DNA of 40,712 nucleotides from Bacteroidota bacterium. GTDB lineage: Bacteria; Bacteroidota; Bacteroidia; AKYH767-A; OLB10. Positions 1 to 40,339 of the stretch are shown here, piece after piece. The notes beneath the pieces were generated by a model. The model saw only the letters and a list, made by a program, of their open reading frames with translations, had not been told where the DNA came from and did no database searches. The stretch covers positions 1 through 40,712 of the forward strand of contig CANFIN010000013.1 of NCBI GenBank assembly GCA_947447155.1, read 5' to 3'. A program made the translations under genes and the position numbers. Position 1 is the first letter of the stretch; each line of letters opens with the position of its first letter.

Positions 1-3000
1 GGTCTAGCTGGAATACCCGAAGAAAATATTGATGGTCGCTCGGAAACTTGCGGCGCAGTGCTGTTACTTGAGAATCGGAATGTAATATCAGCCACAGGGA
101 AATTAGCAGCAGGGTTTTGAGGACCTGTTTTACCTATCATCCAATAACGATCTACTGCATTAGCTGCATTGGACGCAGTTGAGTTAAACATATCAATATG
201 TGATACTGTTGGGGGATCAGGCAAGGTGTTGCCTGACCAGTATTTAGTACCTGCTTTAAATATTCCCATGTCACCTTGTTTATGTAGGAATGTTAATGGG
301 ATATATGTAATTGCAGGAACTGCATTCGTTGTATCAACTCGATTTCCAAATGGAATAGTACGCAATGATGCAGGTGCAACGTACGAACCTATTGTCCAAT
401 TTACAATTGAATTTGCGTTTTCACTAATTAATAAACCTGTGCCTAATGTTGCTGTTCCTTGTACTAATCGTGAGAAAGCCGCTGGATTAGACCATGTCAT
501 GTTTAATTGTTTACCATTCATTACCATCTGGCCCGTTCCTAAAAAGAAGGTATCTTGGATAGAAACGGTATCGTTATTAAGATAAATAGCACGGTTAGCA
601 GCCGACTTAGCCATACTAAACGTATAAAAAGATACTGGCTTTGTTCCAGAGATGTATTGTGTTAGTGAACTATCCATCACAAACAAACTCTTCCCAGCGC
701 TAAAAATACCATTGTTGGTAAAACTACCTTGCACAACCACCTTCGGTTTACCATAGGTACGCTCCCATATAAAGGTTGCATTTGGGCGAAGGGTGTTGAA
801 GGCACTTACGGTGTTGGCCACGTTAGCAACTGGACTTCCATTAGCTGTAATATCTGTGGCAACTTGCCCAATAAAAGAACCGGCAACTGGAGCTGCAGCA
901 ACAGATGACGCCAATCTTCCTAATACCAATGTCGAATTTCTTCCCGTAGATTGCGTAATATCGATATAGTCATTATTTGATGTTCCGTTACCGCCAGCAT
1001 TGGAAAATGTGTATTGAATTACCAAATTACTGGTTCCATCCCATACAATCGGTGTTCCTAGGGTAAATGTATTTACTCCATAAACTATTGGCTGACTAGC
1101 ATTCGTATAGGCTGTTGTTACTCCATTAATAGGAACCGTACTGGTGAACGCTGTTGGAACAGCTCCACTACATATATATCCAATATTAAAGTTAGCATAA
1201 TAACGAATTGGAGTTGTTAAGTCGTTGTTTTTTACATTCAGTTGTATTGCAGTAATTTTATCTCCTCCCTGTAATCCTAATAATAACAGGTCGCTAGCAA
1301 GATAGATTATCTGCGATTGAGCAGCTTTATAGGTCTTTCCGCACAATGGTGTCATATTGTAGTTTAACAGCGTTCCTGTTGAGTTCGGGAATACGGCATT
1401 ATTGATTGGCGTTTTGGTACCCACTACATTAATATAACCACTGTTATTTAAGTTTCCTGCAATTTTTAAAGTGGTTGCATTAGGAAGTGGGGCATCAATG
1501 TATAATGAATCCTGGCTAGAAATAGTCAACGATTTACAATTTGCTGCAACACCAGATTTTATTATCGGATATATATAAGGTCTTGTACCTGGATTTACGA
1601 TTGATTTATCTATAACTGTAGAGTCCGTCATTGTTGGAACAGAAGGACACCAGTTTGCTGGGTTATTCCAATCACTTGTATTGCCTAACCATAATTTATA
1701 AGAAGCACTGCAATTAGGAATAATGGTTACCACAAAATCTTCACACTCCCCATAGGTGGCTGCGGTACATGGCGTCATAGTAGCTGCTGAGGATGCATAA
1801 ACTTCTCTTACACGCAAACGCGTTGATCCTTGAAAAGGAGCTGGAATAGATCCCGTTGAAGGTACAGTGAATGACCATGTTGCTGTACCATTGGCAAGTA
1901 AACTAGCAAATCCCAAGCGCTCACCTGTATACGAGCTCGCACCTGCAGTACCGGTCCATGTCATTGGTAAATTATCAAATACGCCATCGCGGTTAAAATC
2001 TATCCATGCAGAAATTCCATTATTACCAGACCATGTACCCACTTTAACAGTAATAGAATAAGTTATTCCCTGTTGTAGTGTAACACTATTACCAGCTAAT
2101 ACAGGATTACGATATTCATAATCGGGCGGGTGACTTGTAAATGGGCAAGCTGGAAAACAAGTCACGCTAGGAGGAAATGTTGTTTGCGTAGTAGGACTAT
2201 TAGGAACAGATGCTGTTGCTAAATTTACGCCATTACCAATGTTGGTTCCTCCATAACCAATTAAAGAAACCCCTGCTACATAATCATTATTTGTATAGGT
2301 CGCCCATGAAGTCCCAACCGTATAGCTTGGGAGGCAATAAGGGATATCTATCTGACAAGCTCCTGCCAATGTGAAAGTAGTAGTTAGTGCCGATGTACAT
2401 GTTGAAGCGTCTGCCCCTGAACTTGGACAACTATTAGGACCTCCTCCTACAACTGCTCCCCTAAAATCACCATCCAAATAATCACCTCCAACTGCCGCAG
2501 GTTTTAAATCATATACCAACCAGAAATAGGTAGTATCATATTCCAAATAGAAGCAGCTCCCTGACGCATTTTGAAAATCGAGATTGGTTCCTACTCCTGT
2601 TAATGTTGAGCCAAAAGTGCTTTTTGGGTAAGAAGCTCCAGCAATCCCTGTGGTACTCGGGAATGGAGTGACATAGGAGCTATTGAATTGCTCATATCCT
2701 CCTGTATAGTAAATTTTTGCATTTAATATGTCTGTTGAAGCATTACTCGAACCATTGGTATTGAATAAAAGAGAGTCTAATTTGACGGGGTTGTTGGTTC
2801 CTGCTGTTGTTAATGCTCCGCAACCTGAGTTACCCCCTACCACACAACGAACACCCAATATCCATTGGTTAGTTGCTCCAGCTGAGGTAGTCGCTGCATT
2901 TTGTTGTAATAAATCAAATTTAACATCTGTGGCAAGCATTGCTGCTGGATAAGTATTAACCGTAAAATTATCTAGATACATATTGTTACCAATCGCCGTA

Positions 3001-3656
3001 ATACCACGAATTATAAAGTAATTGCGTTTAGTATTGTAAGTCGCTGCAGGCAATGTGAATTTATATTCGTACCAATTACCAGTAGCAACACTAGGAGCCA
3101 TAGTAGATAAACGATTAATTACATTTGTCCCAGCTTGATGATTGATAGGTGTTAATGTTGCACCATTGCCAGGAGAAACACCCGACCAAAATACTTCTAA
3201 GCGATCATTATTGGAAGGAAAAACATTATCACGATAAACCCAGAAACTAAGGGTTGGATTCACTCCAGCATTATTACTAAAGTCGAATGATTTAGAAATA
3301 ATATATGCGGTATCTGTACTAGACACAAATGAGTTTAACATAATCACATTTGCTCCACCACCAACTCCCGAAATAGTAGTTGCTGAGAAAGAAGTACCAC
3401 TGGCTGGATAACCGACATTAAGGGCTGGTGCAACTGGATTTGCTGTAGTAGCCGCTGATATTCTTGTGAATTCGGCAACAATACCCTTTCGCGCTTTCCA
3501 ACCTGGCATTGGGAAAAATCCAGATTCGGCACTTTCAGTTTGAGTTACAACCTGTGCTCTAACATCCATTGTACCAAAAGAAATTAAAATCAAAAGGAGA
3601 ATCATAACGGAGTTCAATCCTTTTTTTAAATAGCTAAACTTGTAGTTGATTTTCAT
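1..3656 (-). CDS. Very large secreted GEVED-domain protein, probable T9SS cargo/adhesin (3' part outside window)
   Basis: The frame is open from an ATG at 3654-3656 to the window edge (at least 1217 residues, no stop); the ORF track misses it because it has no end here. Residues 1-35 form a signal peptide ending VRA-Q. Residues about 36-235 look like a jelly-roll (choice-of-anchor/cleaved-adhesin type) domain. Residues about 510-645 are a GEVED domain, with WIDFNRDGVF followed by YGECEDFVV. About 652-730 contains the NPANWCPSVP motif that begins many Bacteroidota beta-helical regions. About 762-885 is a domain with VWDGTSNLVIQY, which recurs in the PNGase-F-like protein of this window. The C-terminus is not visible, so the T9SS sorting domain is inferred from architecture only. 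A role in adhesion or a surface layer is likely but unproven; no catalytic motif was seen. A weak -7-like TAGTTTCG lies on the minus strand at 3692-3699. Confidence 0.85.
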   Translation of the reverse strand, partial: MKINYKFSYLKKGLNSVMILLLILISFGTMDVRAQVVTQTESAESGFFPMPGWKARKGIVAEFTRISAATTANPVAPALNVGYPASGTSFSATTISGVGGGANVIMLNSFVSSTDTAYIISKSFDFSNNAGVNPTLSFWVYRDNVFPSNNDRLEVFWSGVSPGNGATLTPINHQAGTNVINRLSTMAPSVATGNWYEYKFTLPAATYNTKRNYFIIRGITAIGNNMYLDNFTVNTYPAAMLATDVKFDLLQQNAATTSAGATNQWILGVRCVVGGNSGCGALTTAGTNNPVKLDSLLFNTNGSSNASTDILNAKIYYTGGYEQFNSSYVTPFPSTTGIAGASYPKSTFGSTLTGVGTNLDFQNASGSCFYLEYDTTYFWLVYDLKPAAVGGDYLDGDFRGAVVGGGPNSCPSSGADASTCTSALTTTFTLAGACQIDIPYCLPSYTVGTSWATYTNNDYVAGVSLIGYGGTNIGNGVNLATASVPNSPTTQTTFPPSVTCFPACPFTSHPPDYEYRNPVLAGNSVTLQQGITYSITVKVGTWSGNNGISAWIDFNRDGVFDNLPMTWTGTAGASSYTGERLGFASLLANGTATWSFTVPSTGSIPAPFQGSTRLRVREVYASSAATMTPCTAATYGECEDFVVTIIPNCSASYKLWLGNTSDWNNPANWCPSVPTMTDSTVIDKSIVNPGTRPYIYPIIKSGVAANCKSLTISSQDSLYIDAPLPNATTLKIAGNLNNSGYINVVGTKTPINNAVFPNSTGTLLNYNMTPLCGKTYKAAQSQIIYLASDLLLLGLQGGDKITAIQLNVKNNDLTTPIRYYANFNIGYICSGAVPTAFTSTVPINGVTTAYTNASQPIVYGVNTFTLGTPIVWDGTSNLVIQYTFSNAGGNGTSNNDYIDITQSTGRNSTLVLGRLASSVAAAPVAGSFIGQVATDITANGSPVANVANTVSAFNTLRPNATFIWERTYGKPKVVVQGSFTNNGIFSAGKSLFVMDSSLTQYISGTKPVSFYTFSMAKSAANRAIYLNNDTVSIQDTFFLGTGQMVMNGKQLNMTWSNPAAFSRLVQGTATLGTGLLISENANSIVNWTIGSYVAPASLRTIPFGNRVDTTNAVPAITYIPLTFLHKQGDMGIFKAGTKYWSGNTLPDPPTVSHIDMFNSTASNAANAVDRYWMIGKTGPQNPAANFPVADITFRFSSNSTAPQVSERPSIFSSGIPAR

Positions 3657-3741
3657 ACGCAATAATATTTTTTACTAGATAAACAATCAACCGAAACTAA
3701 ATAATTCAGATGATGGTTTGATGTTTTTATTTACTTAATTG

Positions 3742-5331: not shown

Positions 5332-6668
5332 AGTCGGATTTAACAATAGAAAATGAAGTAGCCACTATTTTAAAGAGCGCAAGTTCTTCAAAAATAGTAT
5401 TGGCTGTCTCTGGCGGCATTGATTCAATGGTGTTGTTACATCTTTTAAAAAAGTTTTCTACAAAATTCGAAGTTGCTCATTGCAATTTTAATTTAAGAGG
5501 AGAAGAAAGTGAGAAAGATTATCTGTTTGTAAAAAAGATATCCCTTCAAAATGATATTGTTTTTAATGGGACAAAGTTCGAAACACAATCATTTGCAAAG
5601 CAAAACGGCATATCTATTCAGATGGCCGCTAGAGATCTTCGTTATAAATGGTTCAATGAAATAATTCAAAACAAAAAACTGGATTTATTAGTTACAGCAC
5701 ATCATAAAGACGATCAGATTGAAACACTTTTGTTGAATTTATTTAGAGGTAAAGGAAATTTTTCATGGGAAGGAATGCATGTATTCCAAAACAAAATTGT
5801 GCGACCATTATTGAATTTTTCTAAGCAGGAACTGATTGCTTATGCGATAGAAAACAAAATTGAATGGAGAGAGGACAGCAGTAATGAAAAATCGGAGTAT
5901 CAACGAAACTACCTTCGCAACGAGTTAATTCCACAACTTGCAAAACAATTTCCTTCTCTCGAGAACAACTTATTGCAATTTGCAGAAATAAACAAGTATA
6001 ACAATTCTATACTTCGTCGTTTTATCAATCAAAAGAAAAAAGAACTTTGTAAAATAGAAGGGGCTTTTCTAAAAATAAATTGCGACTTATTGAAACATGA
6101 AGATGATCCTGAAATGCTATTATTCCATCTGATTCATTCCTACGGTTTCAATCTTGAAAATTGCATACAATTGCTCCAATCTGTAAACAGCTCGGGGAAG
6201 AAATTTTTCAGTAAAAATTATATTGCATTGATTGACCGGAAAAATATTCTGATTAAAAAAAGTGAAGTAAAAAATAATCCATCTATAATTATTGGCGACA
6301 GCTTTAATAGCGTAACATATAACGACTATTTATTTCAATTTTCTGAAATAAAAAACCAACAAATAGAATTAAAAACAAATTTAAAATCGATTGCCCTAAT
6401 TGATAAGGCATTGATTACTGAACAGCTTGAAATAAGAACCTACAGAGAAGGCGATTATTTTCATCCTTTAGGTATGAGTGGAAAAAAACTACTGAGCGAT
6501 TTTTTTATTGATGAGAAAATAAACGATTTTTTAAAAACAGAAATTCCATTGCTTTGTTGTGACGGTAAAATTATTTGGGTTGCAGGCTTTCGACTAGATG
6601 ACCGATTTAAAGTTACTGAAAACACCACCTCAATATTGAGAGTAGAATTATCTGTAGCTAATTCATAG
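5328..6668 (+). CDS. tilS: tRNA(Ile)-lysidine synthase
   Basis: TilS ligates lysine to C34 of the CAU-anticodon tRNA-Ile using ATP, changing its decoding from AUG to AUA; it is essential in most bacteria. The PP-loop SGGIDS (residues 28-33) starts the N-terminal ATP-binding domain, followed by HCNFNLRGEES and AHHKDDQIETLLLNLFRG, all typical of TilS. The C-terminal TilS domain is seen at about residues 370-440 (RTYREGDYFHPLGMSGKKLLSDFFID). The length of 446 aa is usual for the full three-domain form. The ATG overlaps the end of pabB by 4 nt, so the two genes are very probably co-transcribed. Nothing is anomalous in the motifs. Confidence 0.97.
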   Translation: MKSDLTIENEVATILKSASSSKIVLAVSGGIDSMVLLHLLKKFSTKFEVAHCNFNLRGEESEKDYLFVKKISLQNDIVFNGTKFETQSFAKQNGISIQMAARDLRYKWFNEIIQNKKLDLLVTAHHKDDQIETLLLNLFRGKGNFSWEGMHVFQNKIVRPLLNFSKQELIAYAIENKIEWREDSSNEKSEYQRNYLRNELIPQLAKQFPSLENNLLQFAEINKYNNSILRRFINQKKKELCKIEGAFLKINCDLLKHEDDPEMLLFHLIHSYGFNLENCIQLLQSVNSSGKKFFSKNYIALIDRKNILIKKSEVKNNPSIIIGDSFNSVTYNDYLFQFSEIKNQQIELKTNLKSIALIDKALITEQLEIRTYREGDYFHPLGMSGKKLLSDFFIDEKINDFLKTEIPLLCCDGKIIWVAGFRLDDRFKVTENTTSILRVELSVANS

Positions 6669-6732
6669 ATTCAATTTCAACAATTAACCTCTTTTTAAAG
6701 CAACATCCTTTCGCTGAAAGGTATTAAATCCT

Positions 6733-6740
6733 TATTTTTG
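6733..6740 (+). promoter_or_regulatory. -7 box TATTTTTG upstream of the deoxyhypusine-synthase-like gene
   Basis: This is an exact match to TAnnTTTG in the 90-bp gap after tilS, 18 nt before the ATG at 6759. A TTTCG at 6709-6713, about 19 nt upstream, may act as a poor -33 element. It overlaps the TTG (6738) that the ORF track uses as start, which argues against that start. Confidence 0.55.
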
Positions 6741-6758
6741 CGCCTCAAACAATTAACT

Positions 6759-7733
6759 ATGCAAAGAGGACCTATTTCACAATTCATGGAGAAGCATTAC
6801 TTACATTTCAATGCTGCTGCCATGGTAGATGCTGCCAAAGGATATGAAACACACTTATTAGAAGGTGGGAAAATGATGATTACGCTAGCAGGTGCGATGA
6901 GCACTGCCGAGTTAGGAATATCGTTAGCCGATATGATTAGAGAAGGGAAATTAGACATTATATCATGCACAGGAGCGAATCTGGAGGAAGATATCATGAA
7001 TTTAGTAGCTCACTCACATTACAAGCGTGTTCCACATTATCGTGATTTAAGTCCGCAAGATGAATGGGAATTATTGGAAGGAGGTTATAATCGTGTAACA
7101 GACACCTGTATTCCTGAAGAAGAGGCTTTTCGCAGAATTCAAAAACATATTTTCAAGCAATGGAAAGATGCTCAAGATGCGGGTGAAAGATTTTTCCCTC
7201 ATGAATATATGTACAAGATGCTTTTAAGCAAAGAAATGGAGCAGTATTATGAAATTGATCCAAAAAATAGCTGGATGATTGCTGCTGCAGAAAGAAATTT
7301 GCCGATTATTGTTCCTGGTTGGGAAGATAGCACGATGGGAAATATTTTTGCGTCATACTGTATTAAAGGAATATTAAATCCATCCACCATGAAAAGTGGA
7401 ATTGAATACATGACATGGTTAGCAGATTGGTACATTAAAAATTCAGAAGGCAAAGGAGTAGGATTTTTCCAGATTGGTGGTGGTATTGCCGGCGACTTCC
7501 CTATTTGTGTTGTTCCAATGTTATATCAGGATATGGAGATGGAGAACATTCCATTCTGGAGTTATTTCTGTCAGATAAGTGATTCGACAACAAGTTATGG
7601 ATCTTATTCGGGAGCAGTTCCAAATGAAAAAATTACTTGGGGTAAATTAGACATACATACGCCAAAATTTATTGTTGAATCAGATGCTTCAATTGTTGCA
7701 CCCTTAATTTTTGCGTGGATATTAAAACAGTAA
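6759..7733 (+). CDS. Deoxyhypusine synthase family protein (bacterial homologue)
   Basis: It is homologous over its full length to deoxyhypusine synthase, the NAD-dependent enzyme that transfers the aminobutyl group of spermidine to a lysine. Visible family features are ITLAGAMSTAELG and ISCTGANLEED near the N-terminus, GWEDSTMGN mid-protein, and SGAVPNEKITWGKLD near the C-terminus. The lysine of WGK (K296 from this ATG) aligns with the catalytic lysine of eukaryotic DHS (SGARPDEAVSWGK). Bacteria lack eIF5A, so the acceptor must differ; some bacterial members make homospermidine, and that is the most economical guess here. The start is the ATG at 6759 (324 aa) rather than the track TTG at 6738, because the -7 box overlaps the latter. 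The glycosyltransferase gene follows after 21 nt, so co-transcription is likely though no functional link is evident. Confidence 0.88.
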   Translation: MQRGPISQFMEKHYLHFNAAAMVDAAKGYETHLLEGGKMMITLAGAMSTAELGISLADMIREGKLDIISCTGANLEEDIMNLVAHSHYKRVPHYRDLSPQDEWELLEGGYNRVTDTCIPEEEAFRRIQKHIFKQWKDAQDAGERFFPHEYMYKMLLSKEMEQYYEIDPKNSWMIAAAERNLPIIVPGWEDSTMGNIFASYCIKGILNPSTMKSGIEYMTWLADWYIKNSEGKGVGFFQIGGGIAGDFPICVVPMLYQDMEMENIPFWSYFCQISDSTTSYGSYSGAVPNEKITWGKLDIHTPKFIVESDASIVAPLIFAWILKQ

Positions 7734-7754
7734 TTTTTACGTTAGCTGCAAATC

Positions 7755-8492
7755 ATGTCTGATTCATTAATTATAATACCTACTTATAACGAGAAAGAAA
7801 ACATCGGTAGAATGTTAACTAACTTGATGTCGCTTCCGTTTGCGTTTGATGTATTAGTCATTGATGATAATTCCAAAGACGGAACAGCAACCATCGTAAA
7901 AGATCACATACAACAGTTCCCAAATCGAATTTTCATTGAAGAAAGAAGTGGGAAGTTAGGTTTGGGAACTGCTTATATACATGGTTTTAAATGGGCATTA
8001 CAAAAAAATTACGATTTTATTTTTGAAATGGATGCTGACTTTTCTCATAACCCGAATGATTTAATAAGACTTCGCGAAGCTTGCATAAACAACAAAGCTG
8101 ATATGAGTATTGGCTCTCGCTATATTACAGGCGTTAATGTTGTAAACTGGCCGATGGGAAGAGTGATGATGTCGTACTTCGCTTCAATGTATGTACGCAT
8201 TATAACGGGCATGTCTATACGCGATACAACAGCAGGATTTAAATGTTATAATCGAAAAGTATTGGAGTCGATCAACTTTGATAAAATCAGGTTTACTGGC
8301 TACGCTTTTCAGATTGAAATGAAATTTGCTGCCTGGAAATTAGGATTTAAAATTACAGAAGTGCCTATCATTTTTACGGATCGCAGTGAAGGTCAATCGA
8401 AGATGAGTGGTGGGATTTTTAAAGAAGCGATTTTTGGTGTTTTGTCAATCAAGATAAAATCCTGGTTTAGCAGCTATAAGAAAAAAGATTAA
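7755..8492 (+). CDS. Polyprenol monophosphomannose synthase-type glycosyltransferase (GT2, DPM1-like)
   Basis: The 245-aa family 2 glycosyltransferase begins with IIIPTYNEKENI and VLVIDDNSKDGT, carries the metal-binding EMDADFSHNP, and then GSRY, DTTAGFKCYNR and a C-terminal SEGQSKMSGG. This combination and length match the soluble DPM1-like enzymes that move mannose from GDP-mannose to a polyprenyl phosphate at the inner membrane. There is no C-terminal transmembrane segment, so it is the short form. The product would serve as donor for periplasmic O-mannosylation or surface glycans. A GDP-mannose synthesis gene lies nearby on the opposite strand (9650-10735). Its stop codon shares bases with the stop of convergent nhaA (TTAA). 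Substrate specificity is inferred; a glucosyl or other hexosyl donor cannot be excluded. Confidence 0.88.
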   Translation: MSDSLIIIPTYNEKENIGRMLTNLMSLPFAFDVLVIDDNSKDGTATIVKDHIQQFPNRIFIEERSGKLGLGTAYIHGFKWALQKNYDFIFEMDADFSHNPNDLIRLREACINNKADMSIGSRYITGVNVVNWPMGRVMMSYFASMYVRIITGMSIRDTTAGFKCYNRKVLESINFDKIRFTGYAFQIEMKFAAWKLGFKITEVPIIFTDRSEGQSKMSGGIFKEAIFGVLSIKIKSWFSSYKKKD

Positions 8493-9643
8493 GCAGCTTT
8501 AGACTTTCTAAGCGTAACAAAACCAGCAATACCCATTAATAATGATGCGAGCAAAATCACAAACTTAATTGAAGTTTGAAGTTCATGATTAGGGAAAGCT
8601 AGCATCAAAATAAAAATTGACATGGTAAATCCTATACCACCTAACATTCCTGCACCAGCAATTTTTCTGAAATCACAACCTTCTGGCAGTTTACCTATCC
8701 CCGATTTTACGATCATTTTTGTTGAATAATAAATCCCAACTGGCTTTCCAATTATTAAGCCCAAGAAAACACCAATTGTTGCAGTATTTATCCACTCGCT
8801 CAAAGAAGAGAACTCGAGCTTCATAGCAGTATTTGCAACAGCAAACAATGGCAAGATTAAATAATCAACAGGTATAGTAAGCGAATTCTGCAAACGCTCT
8901 AACGGCGACCCGATACCGCTGCGGTCTTTTAATGGAATAAATAATGCAGTCATAACACCTGCAATTGTTGCGTGAACGCCGGAACATAAAATAAAATACC
9001 ATGATATTAAACCAAGTAATAAATAATAGATTGTATTTTTAATTTTAAGAAAATTCATTGTTATCATCAAACAAAAAACAACTGCTGCATAAATTAAAAA
9101 ATTAAGCATTAATTGATGACTATAAAATATTGCAATGACAATTACAGCTCCTAGATCATCAATAATAGCCAATGACATTAGAAACAATTTTAATCCTGCC
9201 GGAATATTTTTACCTGCCAGACTCAGAATAGCAATTGCAAATGCAATATCAGTTGCCATAGGTATTCCCCATCCATTTGCCGTTGAACTATTGAAATTTA
9301 ATATTAGATAAATTGCTGCGGGCACAACCATCCCTCCTATTGCAGCTACGATAGGGGTTATTGATTTTTTAAATGAGGACAACTCTCCGATTACAAACTC
9401 CCTTTTAATTTCTAATCCTACATGCAAAAAGAAAATCGCCATTAAAAAATCATTAATAACAAAAAGAAGATTTTCTTGATGACCAGAAAAGGAAAATCGA
9501 TTTACATTCCAGAGATCAATATACTTTTCTGAATATGAAGAATTCGATAATATCAAAGATAAAATAGTAACTGCAAGTAACAAAACACCAGTAGAGCGAA
9601 AATAAGAACTCCACTTTATAAATGTATTTTTAATTGCAGTCAT
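8489..9643 (-). CDS. nhaA: Na+/H+ antiporter NhaA
   Basis: NhaA expels sodium in exchange for protons in the inner membrane, regulating pH and sodium. The 384 residues contain about 11-12 hydrophobic helices. Diagnostic segments are ATDIAFAIAILSLAGKNIP and LMSLAIIDDLGAVIVIAIFYS; the paired aspartates of IIDDLGA are the ion-binding residues and the aspartate of ATDIAFA is also conserved. GAGMLGGIGFTMSIFI near the C-terminus is a further family signature. The ATG lies 6 nt downstream of the manC stop, so both are probably on one transcript even though their functions are unrelated. The stop overlaps the convergent glycosyltransferase gene by 4 nt. Confidence 0.96.
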   Translation of the reverse strand: MTAIKNTFIKWSSYFRSTGVLLLAVTILSLILSNSSYSEKYIDLWNVNRFSFSGHQENLLFVINDFLMAIFFLHVGLEIKREFVIGELSSFKKSITPIVAAIGGMVVPAAIYLILNFNSSTANGWGIPMATDIAFAIAILSLAGKNIPAGLKLFLMSLAIIDDLGAVIVIAIFYSHQLMLNFLIYAAVVFCLMITMNFLKIKNTIYYLLLGLISWYFILCSGVHATIAGVMTALFIPLKDRSGIGSPLERLQNSLTIPVDYLILPLFAVANTAMKLEFSSLSEWINTATIGVFLGLIIGKPVGIYYSTKMIVKSGIGKLPEGCDFRKIAGAGMLGGIGFTMSIFILMLAFPNHELQTSIKFVILLASLLMGIAGFVTLRKSKAA

Positions 9644-32439: not shown

Positions 32440-33012
32440 ATGCCTAGGCCATCGATTAATAGTGAATTAGATAATAAACAATTGGATGTATTTCATGAGA
32501 CTGGCATTAATGGATTCTTTCGTGTTTTAAGTAGTAATTTGAACAATCAAAACAATTTGGCAGACAACAAAGCCAGTACTTTGATTTCAATTAATACCAT
32601 TTTGCTTACGCTAATCATAAGTACATTAGTAAAGCAGGCGAACTATTTTGACAACTTTAAAACTCCAATTTTTCTGTTAATGGCTACAACTTTAGTTTCC
32701 ACAATATTTGCAATTTTAGTCACTCGACCTACAATAAAAAAATTTCAAGTAACTCAAGAATTCATTGATGAAAAAAAAACAACGTTCTTGTTTTTCGGAA
32801 ATTTCACAAGTCTTTCGCTTGAAGATTATGAAGAAACAATGTTAGGCATCATTAAAAATGATGAATATTTATTCAGGTCTATTATAGCCGATTTCTATGG
32901 CCAAGGCAAAGTGCTTGATAGAAAGTATCGATTGTTATCCTACGCTTACAATATCTTCCTTTATGGTATTGTTTTTTCTGTTGTTTTATTTTCGATTTTT
33001 ACATTTATTTAA
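32440..33012 (+). CDS. Stand-alone Pycsar effector-like (DUF5706-type) membrane protein
   Basis: A 190-aa protein with hydrophobic helices at about residues 47-64, 75-95 and 170-190. The segment LADNKASTLISINTILLTLIIST matches the conserved start of the DUF5706/Pycsar effector transmembrane family. The near C-terminal DFYGQGKVLDRKYRLLSYAYNIFLYG is its second signature. In pyrimidine cyclic nucleotide (Pycsar) defence systems such proteins damage the inner membrane after a cyclase signals infection. In other Bacteroidota this domain is fused to an HD phosphohydrolase domain; here it stands alone. No nucleotide cyclase gene is beside it: the neighbours are a DUF421 gene and a photolyase gene. 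Assignment is by motif recall and the defence role is inferred; it may be a housekeeping paralogue. Confidence 0.75.
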   Translation: MPRPSINSELDNKQLDVFHETGINGFFRVLSSNLNNQNNLADNKASTLISINTILLTLIISTLVKQANYFDNFKTPIFLLMATTLVSTIFAILVTRPTIKKFQVTQEFIDEKKTTFLFFGNFTSLSLEDYEETMLGIIKNDEYLFRSIIADFYGQGKVLDRKYRLLSYAYNIFLYGIVFSVVLFSIFTFI

Positions 33013-34704: not shown

Positions 34705-36873
34705 TTATTTTATAATCTTCATTTCATTTAACAAATAACCTGCACCGCCGAATTTGTCCATGATAAATAACGTATAGCGAATATCTAAGGAAATTGTTCT
34801 TTGCAAATTAGCATCAAATCCAAAGTCACTTGCAATTGCTTCCCAGTTACCATCGAAAGCAGTTCCGATTAACTCTCCTCTACCATTAATTACAGGAGAT
34901 CCTGAATTGCCACCAGTAATATCATTATCTGTTAAGAAACAAGTATGTAATTCTCCATCCTTGTCAGCATACTGACCAAAGTCTTTAGCTTTTAGCAGGT
35001 CAACTAATTTCTTTGGTGCATCAAATTCAATATCGCCAGGAGTATATTTCTCTAGAATTCCTTTTGATGTAGTGAATTCTTTATAACTAACTGCATCTTT
35101 TGCATTGTACGGTAATACGCGACCGTAAGTAAGGCGCATTGTACCATTTGCATCAGGTGAGTATAATTTTTTGCTATCCATTTCTAACATTGCTGCCTGG
35201 AACAAACGATTTGCACGTCCAAGTTTATTATTGATATCCATTGTAATAGGACGCATTTCATTCATTTTATTCAAGTAAGCAGATGTGATTACATAAATCA
35301 TATCCTTATTCATTTTTTTTAATGAAGGATTAGCCAAGAAAGCTATCATTTTTTCTTTAGATGTCAAGAAAGATTTAGCATATAACTCAGTCGCCATCTT
35401 TGAATAATCCTTATTACACTTAACAGATATATCAACTAATTCTTTTGGAAGATTTGCATGATCCAAGTCTTCAGTCAAATGCATTAAAACAGTTGCTAAT
35501 ACTTTTATTTCAATTGGATCGAAATATTCTTTGTACTGTTCATCTAATTCTTTCGACATGTCTGCAGCAACTTTTTTGGCTTCTTCTGTCTTTGACTTAT
35601 CTTTTAGCAAAGCTTCTAACTTAGATAATCCCATAGCAAAAACCATAGGCTGAGAATTACTAATGCCGTCATCCATATAAACTTTGTACATTCCGTATTT
35701 GTCTAATTGAGCATAAGCCTGATCATATAAACTGAACATCTCATTATAAAGTGCGCCCTTATTATTAGCGGCAATCCAAGCTTTTAATTTATCTTCTTCT
35801 GCTTTTCTTTTCTCAAACAAATGCTGTTGTGGAAGTGCTGTCGATTCACCCATGAACTTCTTCCAATAATTACTCAATCCTGCGAATTTATCGGCATACA
35901 TTAATTTAATTTTTGGATCAGCATGCATAAACTCTTCATATACATCTAACACGTCGCGACGAACTTTAACACGCATTGGTCTTTCTTTAGAAGAATAATA
36001 TTTTATTCCCTGGCTATAAGTATAGCGTTGTGTTCTGCCAGGATAACCCATGATCATAGCAAAATCTTCAGGATTTTTACCTTGTAAATTAACAGGAAAA
36101 AAATGCTGAGGTGTATAAGGCTTATTGCTAGTATTATAATCAGATGGTTTATTTTCTGCGTTCACATAAATACGAAACATACTAAAGTCACATGTATGAC
36201 GAGGCCACATCCAGTTATCTGTTTCGCCACCAAATTTTCCAATATTTTCTGGAGGAGTTCCAACCAAGCGAATGTCTTTGTAAACTACATAGTACATTGC
36301 TAGATATTTATTTCCTGCGTAGAAAGGAACTACATCAACAACATAATTATCCTTATCGACACCAAGTCCCTCTTTCAATGATGCTTGTAATTTAGTAAGC
36401 TTATCTGCTACAGCTTTAGCACGTGATGTTTCATCCATTGTAAGACTAATACTATCTAAAATTTTTGATGTAACATCTTCTACTTTTGCTAACAAGCCGA
36501 TATTAAAATTTGCTTTTCTTTCTTCAGCTTTATTTTTTGCCCAAAAACCATTTGCAAGAATATTATCTTCATTGGTACTTAGTTCCTGTATAGATCCGTA
36601 ACCACAATGATGATTAGTTAAGAACAACCCTTCACCACTAATTATTTCGCCTGTACAAAACATTCTGTTTTGTTTAGTCATTAAACGCACAACCGCATCC
36701 TTTGCACATGCTTTATTGATATTATAAATATCATCTGCTGTTAGTTTTAATCCACGCGCCTGCATACTATCCTGCAATTGCTGAATCATAATAAGAGGCC
36801 ACATACCTTCGTCGGCCCGAAGTTGCCCTGTTAAAAGAAAAAATCCTAAGAATAGTACTGCTATCTTTTTCAT
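34705..36873 (-). CDS. S46 family dipeptidyl peptidase (DPP7-like)
   Basis: A 722-aa exported serine exopeptidase that releases dipeptides from the N-terminus of peptides, probably periplasmic. The signal peptide is FLGFFLLTGQLRA; EGMWPLIMI follows, the usual mature start of S46 enzymes. The catalytic triad is in place: LTNHHCGYG (H89), WMWPRHTCDFSMFR (Asp) and GGNSGSPV (S657). The residue 18 positions after the serine, which is Gly673 in DPP7 and Arg673 in DPP11 of Porphyromonas, is glycine (FDGNWEA), so a hydrophobic P1 preference (DPP7-like) is more likely than Asp/Glu (DPP11). It starts 22 nt after the PNGase-F-like gene and is almost certainly co-transcribed with it. There is no T9SS domain. 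Confidence 0.95.
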   Translation of the reverse strand: MKKIAVLFLGFFLLTGQLRADEGMWPLIMIQQLQDSMQARGLKLTADDIYNINKACAKDAVVRLMTKQNRMFCTGEIISGEGLFLTNHHCGYGSIQELSTNEDNILANGFWAKNKAEERKANFNIGLLAKVEDVTSKILDSISLTMDETSRAKAVADKLTKLQASLKEGLGVDKDNYVVDVVPFYAGNKYLAMYYVVYKDIRLVGTPPENIGKFGGETDNWMWPRHTCDFSMFRIYVNAENKPSDYNTSNKPYTPQHFFPVNLQGKNPEDFAMIMGYPGRTQRYTYSQGIKYYSSKERPMRVKVRRDVLDVYEEFMHADPKIKLMYADKFAGLSNYWKKFMGESTALPQQHLFEKRKAEEDKLKAWIAANNKGALYNEMFSLYDQAYAQLDKYGMYKVYMDDGISNSQPMVFAMGLSKLEALLKDKSKTEEAKKVAADMSKELDEQYKEYFDPIEIKVLATVLMHLTEDLDHANLPKELVDISVKCNKDYSKMATELYAKSFLTSKEKMIAFLANPSLKKMNKDMIYVITSAYLNKMNEMRPITMDINNKLGRANRLFQAAMLEMDSKKLYSPDANGTMRLTYGRVLPYNAKDAVSYKEFTTSKGILEKYTPGDIEFDAPKKLVDLLKAKDFGQYADKDGELHTCFLTDNDITGGNSGSPVINGRGELIGTAFDGNWEAIASDFGFDANLQRTISLDIRYTLFIMDKFGGAGYLLNEMKIIK

Positions 36874-36895: not shown

Positions 36896-39800
36896 CTATT
36901 TTTTAATGATTAATTTTTTTGTCATTTGTTGATTTCCAGAAACTAAACGCACGAAGTAAACTCCATTGCTAAATTCAGACATATCGACTACTTTATTACC
37001 TGCCGTTACATTTTCATCTTTACTAGAATAGATTATTTTTCCCATCATATCTAGTACATCAATTGAAGCATCCGTACGATTCATTAAATTATAATCGATA
37101 TACACCAACGACTCTGAAGGATTTGGATAAACATTTAAGTTGGTAGTATTAGTTAAAATAAATTCATCTTGACCAGTTGCAATTCCAACTGTAAACTGTT
37201 TATAAGCCTGTCCCCCAAAATCTGAATTGAAATTATACATTACATTTCCCATTGTGTTTTTAAAACGAACATATCCGTTTCCTTGTGCTGTATTGGCCCA
37301 CCACGAAAGTCCATCTTCGCCTGCATCTAATAATTCAAATCGATAACAACCGTTTGGTAAATTAAGAGTATCGTTATAATATGTATTAGCCGAAAGATTG
37401 CTTCTTGAAAGGATGATGTTTCCATTTTCATCTTTCACAGTATAACTATTTTCTGAAGGAGCACTATTAGTTTTTAATTCAATTACAAATTGCGATGGAG
37501 TTGAACTTGGATAAACAAAATTTGTGCGCATCGTATCGTTATGTGCATACTGATCTTGTACACCATTTGGATTACTCACATACGCATAGAATTTTGTTGC
37601 TCCACCAATCCAATTAAAGTTTGGCAGATTCAACGTAGTAGTTTGCATAAAAGGTAAAGTGCCTGTCCAATTATATACTGTTGGAGTAGCACCTTGCAAG
37701 CCATATGTAATAGTAGCAGAAGTAAGTGTAGTTGATCCGGTATTTTTTATAATAATAGTAGGCGAGGAACAAACAGGATTTTTACGCATCCACATTTGAT
37801 TTGTAGTTGGAGCTAAAATATCATTGATTGCTACATCATTGCTAAAGTTAGGTGCGCCATAACTCACAAGCTGATCTTCAATTTGGTAATAATCCCAACC
37901 CGATGTTTGCGTATATGCCTGCACGTTATGATCTAATGAGAATGATGTTCCTGGGGTTATAAAATCAGAAATTTCCCAATCATACGTCCATACCTCAGCA
38001 CCCGGACACCAGTTAGAGCGATCGTACACCCATGTACCTCCTTGCGGATATAAAGGATTGTAGTCGCAGTTATCTCTCCAAACTAATTTTGCATAACGTT
38101 GAACCCCGTTTACTTTGTAATAATGGCTCTTTGGACAAAACTCTGCACAGTTACTTGGTGTATCCATGCCATGTCCTGTAACGCGTGACTTCCATCTTCC
38201 TTGCACTGCATTTGGTGCTAAGCTAACTGTTAATGCTGGCAAATGATTATCGATTGGATCGCTAGCTACACCATAATTAAAATTACCATTCCATAAATTT
38301 TGAATTCCTAATACATTTCGTGGAGGCGTTCCTTCAATAAATAAAAATTTCACATCTAATAATTCCTGCCAATTACCTGCAGCCATATCCACGCTATCAC
38401 GCAGTAACGTTCGGTAGTCACTCACATCAAAAGTCCATGTCCACCCACTACCTAAACTTAATCCGTTTCCATAAGGAGTGATATATCTACCCATCTCATA
38501 TCTTATTGTGTTAGGAGAATAAGTATAGTAAGTATAAACCTGTTGATTTATTGTTCCATCCGCAGGAGTCAATGTTGAGTCGATCATTTGACCTTGCGGC
38601 GTGTAAATAAAATTAGTGTATGAAAGCGGCCATACTACCATCGTATCAGTAGGCACTCCAATATTATTTATTGTATCCAAATATGCTACAATTTGTGTTG
38701 GTGGGTTCATCACTGAATCTAAAACAAATACAGAATCTAACTGTGAGGCATATACGCCCTGTTCAAATGTCAAGTTAGGCCGTAATGTTGTTTCTGTCCA
38801 TGCATAATTAATTTCGGCAGAGCTCTTAAGCGGATTATCAGCCCCGAGACTAAAGTAAGCAGGTCCATGATTCAATGGAGAGGCATCTGCGGCTGTAAAA
38901 TAATTGCCATCATCAAAATGATAATAGGCTACAAGGTTATTATAATAAGGATGTGACGAATCAATTTTCTTATTCATAAATTGCTGAATAGTTGCCTGTG
39001 ATAAATCAACATTAAACACTGCAAACTCATCTATTCTTCCATCATATGACAATGACCCGTTCCAAGTTCCTTTTGCAATTCGGAATTTATCAATTCCATT
39101 CATCAACTTTGTTTTACCTGCAGTTGTAAAAAATGTGGTTCCATTCAAATAAATTTTCATTGCACCCGTAGCACAATTTTTAGTGAATGTCCAATAATTC
39201 CACTGCCCTTTTATCTGAGTTGCTGTTGCAGCTTTTGATATGCGGTCATAGCTAGAACCATCTGTTCCAGCATCCCAGTAAACTTTTGAATCAGACCATG
39301 GCGTATGCGAATTTATTACGCGATTACCCGAAACACCAACAGCTTCGAAAGTTGTACCATCCATTGGTTGCAAAGCAGGATCTCCATAAGCCCAGAAAGA
39401 AACCGTTATAAAAGAATCGATTGCTGCCAAATCAGGATTAACAGGAACTTCTACGTAAGAAGCATAATGAGTTTTAAGCGCACGATCGTTAGATGCGTTG
39501 GTTACACCCGACTTAAATGTAGTTATATTTGATGTAACAATATTATCTACACCCGTATTGGCATTATCAAAAGATACTTCAATAATCAAGTTTGATACAC
39601 CATCCCAGTAAAAAGAATTTGTTAATTGAATATTCCTCCAACCTGCTGTATTAGGTAAGAAATTATGTGCTTTATTATAGACTGTAGTAAATCCAATCGG
39701 ACTTGTTGTTGCAGCTGTTAAAGTATCTGCTGTAACCGATTTCATACGAATTGTCAGTTTATTGAATGACGAACCTATTGATTGCAAAAAGAAGTTTAAT

Positions 39801-40339
39801 CCGGTGATGTTACCAGCACCCATACCCGCGGCCGTTAGTTCTGATGCGCGCCACAAATATTGCGACTTCGAAATGTTATTAGATGTTCCGAAAGGATGAT
39901 TTGAATTAGTAGTACCTGGAGCAACACTATATGTGTTTAAAGAAGTTGTTGTAAGGTGATTTATAAAATAATCCCAATGCGTATTATGTGTATAGGTAGG
40001 TGCATTCGAATAAGTATACGAAGAAAAATTACCTCCATTCACCAAATACAAATTTTGATTATGAATAGTGCTATCAATTAATCCTGTGTGCTTATAAACA
40101 TAAGTATTAGTTAAATAATCCCATTCTCCGCACTCTGGGAATTGTGCAGGATTACATTTCAAAGTATAAAGCATTATTATTTTTTCGACATTCATTGTGT
40201 CTGAAGGAAACACAAACCACGCTCGCTGGGGAGAATTAAAAGTAAATGCCTGTACAACGGTTGTATCGCCTGCACCAGCAAACATTTTAGAAACACCAAC
40301 AAAAAATAGAATTGCTACAATGAGTAATTTCTTTTTCAT
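36896..40339 (-). CDS. Giant secreted PNGase F-type glycoamidase homologue with inserted lectin-like domains and T9SS sorting domain
   Basis: This is an 1147-aa secreted protein; residues 1-23 are a signal peptide. The PNGase F catalytic core is present but split. Residues about 30-85 hold KCNPAQFPECGEWDYLTNTYVY (D74 aligns with catalytic Asp60). After an insertion of about 525 residues the core resumes with RYEMGRYITPYG (613) and runs to about 800. NCAEFCPKSH gives E733, aligning with Glu206, and DRSNWCPG gives R774 and W777, aligning with Arg248 and Trp251. Three disulfide pairs are conserved (C62-C70, C731-C735, C758-C778). The insertion contains a beta-rich domain (about 118-290) and a LamG-like lectin domain (about 305-455). 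The C-terminus (LNVYPNPSESLVYID...KKLIIKK) is a T9SS type A sorting domain. It probably removes N-glycans from glycoproteins outside the cell, though the Glu118 equivalent was not found. Confidence 0.88.
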   Translation of the reverse strand: MKKKLLIVAILFFVGVSKMFAGAGDTTVVQAFTFNSPQRAWFVFPSDTMNVEKIIMLYTLKCNPAQFPECGEWDYLTNTYVYKHTGLIDSTIHNQNLYLVNGGNFSSYTYSNAPTYTHNTHWDYFINHLTTTSLNTYSVAPGTTNSNHPFGTSNNISKSQYLWRASELTAAGMGAGNITGLNFFLQSIGSSFNKLTIRMKSVTADTLTAATTSPIGFTTVYNKAHNFLPNTAGWRNIQLTNSFYWDGVSNLIIEVSFDNANTGVDNIVTSNITTFKSGVTNASNDRALKTHYASYVEVPVNPDLAAIDSFITVSFWAYGDPALQPMDGTTFEAVGVSGNRVINSHTPWSDSKVYWDAGTDGSSYDRISKAATATQIKGQWNYWTFTKNCATGAMKIYLNGTTFFTTAGKTKLMNGIDKFRIAKGTWNGSLSYDGRIDEFAVFNVDLSQATIQQFMNKKIDSSHPYYNNLVAYYHFDDGNYFTAADASPLNHGPAYFSLGADNPLKSSAEINYAWTETTLRPNLTFEQGVYASQLDSVFVLDSVMNPPTQIVAYLDTINNIGVPTDTMVVWPLSYTNFIYTPQGQMIDSTLTPADGTINQQVYTYYTYSPNTIRYEMGRYITPYGNGLSLGSGWTWTFDVSDYRTLLRDSVDMAAGNWQELLDVKFLFIEGTPPRNVLGIQNLWNGNFNYGVASDPIDNHLPALTVSLAPNAVQGRWKSRVTGHGMDTPSNCAEFCPKSHYYKVNGVQRYAKLVWRDNCDYNPLYPQGGTWVYDRSNWCPGAEVWTYDWEISDFITPGTSFSLDHNVQAYTQTSGWDYYQIEDQLVSYGAPNFSNDVAINDILAPTTNQMWMRKNPVCSSPTIIIKNTGSTTLTSATITYGLQGATPTVYNWTGTLPFMQTTTLNLPNFNWIGGATKFYAYVSNPNGVQDQYAHNDTMRTNFVYPSSTPSQFVIELKTNSAPSENSYTVKDENGNIILSRSNLSANTYYNDTLNLPNGCYRFELLDAGEDGLSWWANTAQGNGYVRFKNTMGNVMYNFNSDFGGQAYKQFTVGIATGQDEFILTNTTNLNVYPNPSESLVYIDYNLMNRTDASIDVLDMMGKIIYSSKDENVTAGNKVVDMSEFSNGVYFVRLVSGNQQMTKKLIIKK

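What the first reader, a model, noticed from the sequence alone, without database searches (positions are those of the whole stretch)
38504..40087. PNGase F catalytic domain split by about 525 inserted residues carrying a LamG-like lectin
In classical PNGase F the strand with EWDRYANVYVKN is joined by a short hairpin (NKTTGEW) to YEIGRFITPYW. Here the same two halves (EWDYLTNTYVYKHTG and RYEMGRYITPYG) are present, but a beta-rich domain and a LamG/ConA-like domain are inserted exactly at that hairpin. The insertion keeps three disulfides and most active-site residues of the core. An enzyme that grafts a carbohydrate-binding domain into a loop beside its active-site strand would be an unusual way to target glycoproteins.
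Basis: partly seen in the sequence, partly recalled or inferred. Interest (0 to 1): 0.7.

Follow-up and report, generated by a model that had tools for sequence, protein, structure and literature searches.

The report
PNGase F-like enzyme with inserted lectin-like arm
This secreted bacterial protein looks like an enzyme that cuts sugar chains off proteins, with a 520-residue lectin-like arm spliced into one hairpin of its core; the arrangement is real and shared by many Bacteroidota and relatives, so it is a widespread untested variant of a known enzyme family rather than a one-off.

Summary
ORF 36896-40339 (-), 1147 aa, is a T9SS-secreted PNGase F-superfamily protein. A profile of 55 homologues matches PNGase F (1pnf, E 1.9e-31) in two stretches, profile 23-89 to chain 4-71 and 608-821 to 74-300, so about 520 residues sit at PNGase F's 71/74 hairpin. 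D60, E206, R248, W59 and all six disulfide cysteines are present; W191 is His, as in most active relatives. E118 is Gly, as in type II PNGases that accept core alpha1,3-fucose. The insert is three modules: B1 (no Pfam or PDB relative), a LamG/pentraxin-like domain, and B2. AlphaFold folds it alone as one unit (pTM 0.81). It is not a local oddity: 48 of 198 genomes sampled in the class carry it, as do genomes elsewhere in the phylum and isolates. Sister proteins carry only B2 at the same hairpin, and a few members inside the clade lack the insert, suggesting stepwise gain and clean loss. I predict an extracellular PNGase with a rigid substrate-anchoring arm. Activity and sugar binding by the arm are untested. 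No solved structure or paper that I found describes the architecture. The insertion point is about 14 residues from the catalytic Asp, so 'beside the active site' is doubtful.

The parts
36896..40339 (-). whole gene, 1147 aa, PNGase F-superfamily protein with inserted modules
   Evidence: ORF; Pfam; 55-member alignment
40277..40339 (-). signal peptide, residues 1-21
   Evidence: sequence MKKKLLIVAILFFVGVSKMFA; hydrophobic helix 2-19 in model
40079..40270 (-). N-terminal half of PNGase F core, residues 24-87, with C62/C70 and catalytic W73-D74-Y75 (PNGase F W59-D60-R61)
   Evidence: profile 23-89 aligned to 1pnf 4-71; W59 and D60 in 123/123 inserted relatives
38516..40078 (-). inserted segment, residues 88-608
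   Evidence: gap between the two core halves; folds alone with pTM 0.81
39464..39892 (-). module B1, residues about 150-292, beta-rich, no Pfam family, module also found in other large secreted proteins
38975..39463 (-). LamG/pentraxin-like domain, residues 293-455
   Evidence: Laminin_G_3 E 4.2e-12; pentraxin TM 0.6-0.7 normalised to target; 39 of 40 relatives match
38519..38797 (-). module B2, residues about 515-607, shared with the 740-aa sister proteins at the same hairpin
   Evidence: B2 profile hits lie between the core halves in 146/146 cases
37850..38515 (-). C-terminal half of PNGase F core, residues 609-830, with H723 (W191), E733 (E206), R774 (R248), G655 (E118), disulfides C731/C735 and C758/C778
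37154..37849 (-). two C-terminal beta modules, residues 831-1062
   Evidence: model strands; conserved in alignment A1
36902..37132 (-). T9SS type A C-terminal sorting domain, residues 1070-1146
   Evidence: PF18962 E 1.7e-19, TIGR04183 E 4.7e-14

Best explanation
A type IX-secreted peptide:N-glycosidase of the PNGase F superfamily. The two halves fold into the usual double jelly-roll and bring D74 (D60 of PNGase F) together with E733 (E206), R774 and H723 to hydrolyse the GlcNAc-Asn amide bond of glycoproteins outside the cell. Gly at the E118 position, as in type II PNGases, should leave room for a core alpha1,3-fucose, so plant, algal or invertebrate type N-glycans are likely substrates. 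The hairpin between strands 75-87 and 609-620 is extended into a rigid arm of three modules (B1, LamG, B2) that holds the enzyme on its substrate or on a surface rather than taking part in catalysis. Shown: fold family, split site, conservation of catalytic residues, insert as a folding unit (predicted), phyletic spread, stepwise architecture series. Inferred: enzyme activity, alpha1,3-fucose tolerance, glycan binding by the LamG domain, arm position away from the active site.
For: Profile match to PNGase F, E 1.9e-31, and to zebrafish Ngly2, a proven acid PNGase, E 4.6e-14 (PMC12753239). Fold search: 1png E 4.4e-12, probability 1.00. D60 and W59 in 123/123, E206, R248 and His at 191 in 131/131 inserted relatives; Asp and Glu are the two residues whose mutation abolishes Ngly2 activity, and aromatic-Asp-positive/aromatic plus His/Glu is the shared active-site pattern of characterised PNGases. 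Gly at 118 in 116/131 matches type II enzymes (PMC9522356). Insert alone pTM 0.81, pLDDT 89.7. Genome has 110 T9SS tail matches, two GH92 and one GH20. 48/198 class genomes carry the insert; isolates Taibaiella chishuiensis and Edaphocola flava too. LamG was also joined to PNGase F cores at the N-terminus, including the paralogue in this genome.
Against: No biochemical data for any member with the insert. The glutamate that replaces E118 in type II enzymes (E418 in EMTypeII) could not be aligned; invariant E659 is only a candidate. No neighbouring N-glycan genes seen; the S46 peptidase neighbour is kept only in the closest relative. LamG domains often bind proteins, not sugars. Whole-protein pTM is only 0.54, so the arm's position relative to the active site is unknown.
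Confidence: 0.62

Rival explanations
1. The core is an active amidase but the arm is only a spacer, oligomerisation or protein-binding element, with no sugar recognition.
For: LamG fold is closest to pentraxins and PAPP-A, which often bind proteins; B1 occurs in many other large secreted proteins; several members inside the clade lack the LamG part with the core kept; the NBL accessory domain of EMTypeII can be removed without effect.
Against: LamG residues H345, P347, W348, Y354, D356, D365 and R366 are invariant or nearly so in most relatives, suggesting a conserved site; LamG joined PNGase F cores at least twice by different routes.
Confidence: 0.35
2. The fold is PNGase F-like but the reaction is different or lost (another amidase, or a binding protein).
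For: E118 lost; QE at 658-659 is an invariant motif of this clade not seen in PNGase F; identity to PNGase F over the aligned core is about 25%.
Against: The residues shown to be required in Ngly2, and equivalent in PNGase F, are invariant in over 120 sequences; E118 is also Gly in active type II enzymes.
Confidence: 0.2
3. The insertion is an assembly or binning artefact.
For: The window is from a draft genome, 172 contigs, 84.5% complete.
Against: An independent MAG has an 87% identical full-length protein with the same neighbours; isolates and 48 of 198 class genomes carry the same arrangement.
Confidence: 0.01

Closest known systems
PNGase F (Elizabethkingia meningoseptica, 1PNF)
   Same: Double jelly-roll core, W59/D60/E206/R248, three disulfides, in-register alignment on both sides of the split
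   Different: Short hairpin where this protein has about 520 residues; E118 is Gly655; W191 is His723; no T9SS tail or accessory modules in the solved chain
Type II PNGases (PNGase F-II/EMTypeII 4R4X; B. massiliensis B035DRAFT_03341, 7ZGN)
   Same: Gly at the E118 position, bacterial enzymes of Bacteroidota
   Different: Their accessory NBL domain is N-terminal, not inserted; compensating Glu418 not identified here
Zebrafish Ngly2 acid PNGase (9LWG)
   Same: Best single-sequence PDB match (E 5.9e-7); same catalytic Asp and Glu
   Different: PA and thioredoxin-like domains outside the PNGase domain; lysosomal; no such insert
PNGaseL and PNGaseDo (PMC12381499)
   Same: T9SS-secreted PNGase F-superfamily enzymes with beta modules, shown active
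   Different: Accessory modules described as N- or C-terminal to the catalytic domain, none inserted in it
Pneumococcal sialidases NanA/NanB/NanC (PMC4646021)
   Same: Precedent for an accessory domain inserted in a glycan-processing catalytic domain
   Different: Beta-propeller GH33 enzymes; the CBM40 is N-terminal and the inserted domain is of unknown function

Membership tests
PNGase F superfamily (PF09112/PF09113) | C-terminal jelly-roll profile | tested here: met
   N-glycanase_C E 1.2e-16, 61.2 bits against cut-off 25
PNGase F superfamily (PF09112/PF09113) | N-terminal jelly-roll half | tested here: met
   PF09112 itself did not hit, but the family profile aligns residues 23-89 in register with 1pnf 4-71 including C51, C56, W59, D60; weak score on its own
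PNGase F superfamily (PF09112/PF09113) | Catalytic Asp (D60) and Glu (E206), plus R248 | tested here: met
   D74, E733, R774; invariant in relatives
PNGase F superfamily (PF09112/PF09113) | Fold match to solved PNGases | tested here: met
   1png E 4.4e-12; 9lwg, 4r4z, 3ks7 among top hits; about 240 of 310 residues aligned, which by its length is the C-half
PNGase F superfamily (PF09112/PF09113) | Both halves form one double jelly-roll | tested here: inconclusive
   Supported by residue conservation and by clade members without the insert; coordinates not available for superposition
PNGase F superfamily (PF09112/PF09113) | Hydrolysis of GlcNAc-Asn bond | not testable with these tools
   needs an assay
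Type I PNGase | Acidic residue at position 118 | tested here: not met
   Gly655; Gly in 116/131 inserted relatives
Type II PNGase | Gly at position 118 | tested here: met
   compared with PMC9522356
Type II PNGase | Compensating glutamate (E418 in EMTypeII) | tested here: inconclusive
   no in-register alignment to 4R4X; invariant E659 is a candidate only
LamG (PF13385) | Profile and fold match | tested here: met
   E 4.2e-12; pentraxin-like fold matches
T9SS type A cargo | C-terminal sorting domain | tested here: met

The most novel reading that the evidence does not exclude
The B1-LamG-B2 arm, rigidly continued from the catalytic strand, is a glycoprotein-recognition device that gives these enzymes selectivity for particular native glycoproteins or particles, making this a distinct, phylum-wide class of lectin-armed PNGases.
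Probability: 0.25. Interest if true: 0.55.

Novelty: new variant of a known kind. Interest (0 to 1): 0.42.

Why it matters
The characterised PNGases that I found carry accessory domains only outside the catalytic domain. A widespread lineage with a lectin-like arm spliced into the catalytic fold, with natural relatives holding no insert, only B2, or the whole arm, allows a direct test of what an inserted lectin does for deglycosylation of native proteins, and may give new glycoanalysis enzymes for core alpha1,3-fucosylated glycans.

Tried and rejected
Operon with the downstream S46 peptidase (22 bp gap): the neighbours are kept only in the closest relative L071 of the loci examined, so no conserved pairing. 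B1 and B2 against PDB by profile: no credible relatives. Insert as a whole against PDB: only the LamG part matches, best TM normalised to the query 0.33 among the rows shown. One strict clade for LamG-insert bearers: rejected, p-AU 8e-6, because some nested members lack it. A model of a clade member without the insert was not run, because such loci did not come from the allowed sources. PF04231 in the genome: no match, uninformative. No held paper found that describes the architecture.

Full report
What is there. The gene at 36896-40339 (-) encodes 1147 aa with a signal peptide and a type IX secretion C-terminal domain. Pfam sees N-glycanase_C at 706-802, Laminin_G_3 at 293-452 and Por_Secre_tail at 1070-1145. 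A profile from 55 full-length homologues finds solved PNGase F at E 1.9e-31 in two stretches, profile 23-89 to chain 4-71 and 608-821 to 74-300. Fold search with the AlphaFold model (mean pLDDT 87.6, pTM 0.54) ranks PNGase F first (E 4.4e-12), with Ngly2 and PNGF-II among the top hits; the 240 aligned columns correspond by length to the C-half, so co-folding of the two halves rests on conservation and on arm-less relatives rather than on a superposition.

Active site. The window has W73-D74-Y75, H723, E733 and R774 where PNGase F has W59-D60-R61, W191, E206 and R248. D60 and W59 are kept in 123 of 123 and E206, R248 and His at 191 in 131 of 131 relatives with the insert. Asp and Glu are the two residues whose loss abolishes zebrafish Ngly2 activity (PMC12753239), and the aromatic-Asp-positive/aromatic motif with His/Glu is the shared pattern in characterised PNGases (PMC12381499). 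E118 is Gly655, Gly in 116 of 131. In PNGase F E118 blocks a core alpha1,3-fucose, and type II enzymes have Gly there with another glutamate taking over its role (PMC9522356). An invariant or nearly invariant Q658-E659 pair is typical of this clade; whether E659 takes over is unknown. All six disulfide cysteines are present in the window; the C204-C208 pair is not universal in the family.

The insert. It contains a stalk, module B1 (about 150-292), the LamG domain (293-455) and module B2 (about 515-607). B1 and B2 have no Pfam or PDB relatives. LamG is pentraxin-like, and 39 of 40 relatives match Laminin_G_3. Folded alone, the insert gives pTM 0.81 and pLDDT 89.7, so its modules are predicted to pack as one unit. 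In the full model one strand runs from residue 76 to 96 and another from 601 to 620, so the core hairpin appears to continue into the arm. The exit point is 14 residues from D74, at the end of the strand; by beta geometry this is roughly 40 angstroms, which argues against a lid over the active site, but I had no coordinates to measure it.

Spread and history. In a sample of 198 genomes drawn evenly from the class, 104 have PF09113 and 48 have the full insert, in 21 of 39 family codes that have any such protein. The same insert occurs in other classes of the phylum sample and in isolates (L139 Taibaiella, L150 Edaphocola). About 740-aa sister proteins carry only B2 at the same hairpin (gap about 107 by profile; B2 hits lie between the two halves in 146 of 146 cases). 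On a tree of the core with the insert left out, proteins with the insert fall in one starred group (99, 63 rows; quick tree, SH-aLRT only), within which L060, the L018/L020/L023 group and L170 lack LamG. Four changes of state are needed and a strict single clade is rejected. The simplest reading is one gain of B1-LamG beside an older B2, then three losses; repeated gain is less likely but not excluded, and the tree itself is unrooted. B1 is a module shared with other large secreted proteins, including one in this window. The paralogue in the same genome (L151, 1180 aa) has LamG domains N-terminal to an uninterrupted core.

Interpretation. Most likely an extracellular PNGase with type II-like tolerance and a rigid anchoring arm. 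The genome supports glycoprotein foraging: 110 T9SS tail matches, two GH92 and one GH20. The gene is not in an evident N-glycan operon; most PNGase genes examined in PMC12381499 were orphans too. Activity and ligand of the arm remain untested. Finding the same arrangement across the phylum lowers the surprise but raises the weight of the architecture.

Noticed in passing
L151 (G000:C77) 5705-9247 (-): Second PNGase F-superfamily protein in the same genome, 1180 aa, with two N-terminal LamG-like stretches and an uninterrupted core (CDPWDQTGKVSIFKNGQEYELGRFITPYG): LamG joined to PNGase F by a different route.
   Followed up: partly
window 3-3662 (-), match at 981-1346: Open-ended 1220-aa ORF with a GEVED domain carries a B1-type module (E 3.4e-15), so B1 is a shared secreted-protein module.
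   Followed up: partly
window 32440-33012 (+): 190-aa PycTM-type membrane protein (Pycsar effector family) whose immediate neighbours scanned are not cyclase or defence genes; possibly an orphan effector or a relative with another role.
   Followed up: partly
window 34705-36873 (-): Peptidase S46 gene 22 bp downstream of the PNGase-like gene on the same strand; pairing not conserved beyond the nearest relative.
   Followed up: yes
L157: A relative whose gene is broken by an in-frame TAA inside the C-half of the core.
   Followed up: no
L018, L020, L023, L170, L060: Members nested in the inserted clade that lack LamG: natural arm-less controls.
   Followed up: partly
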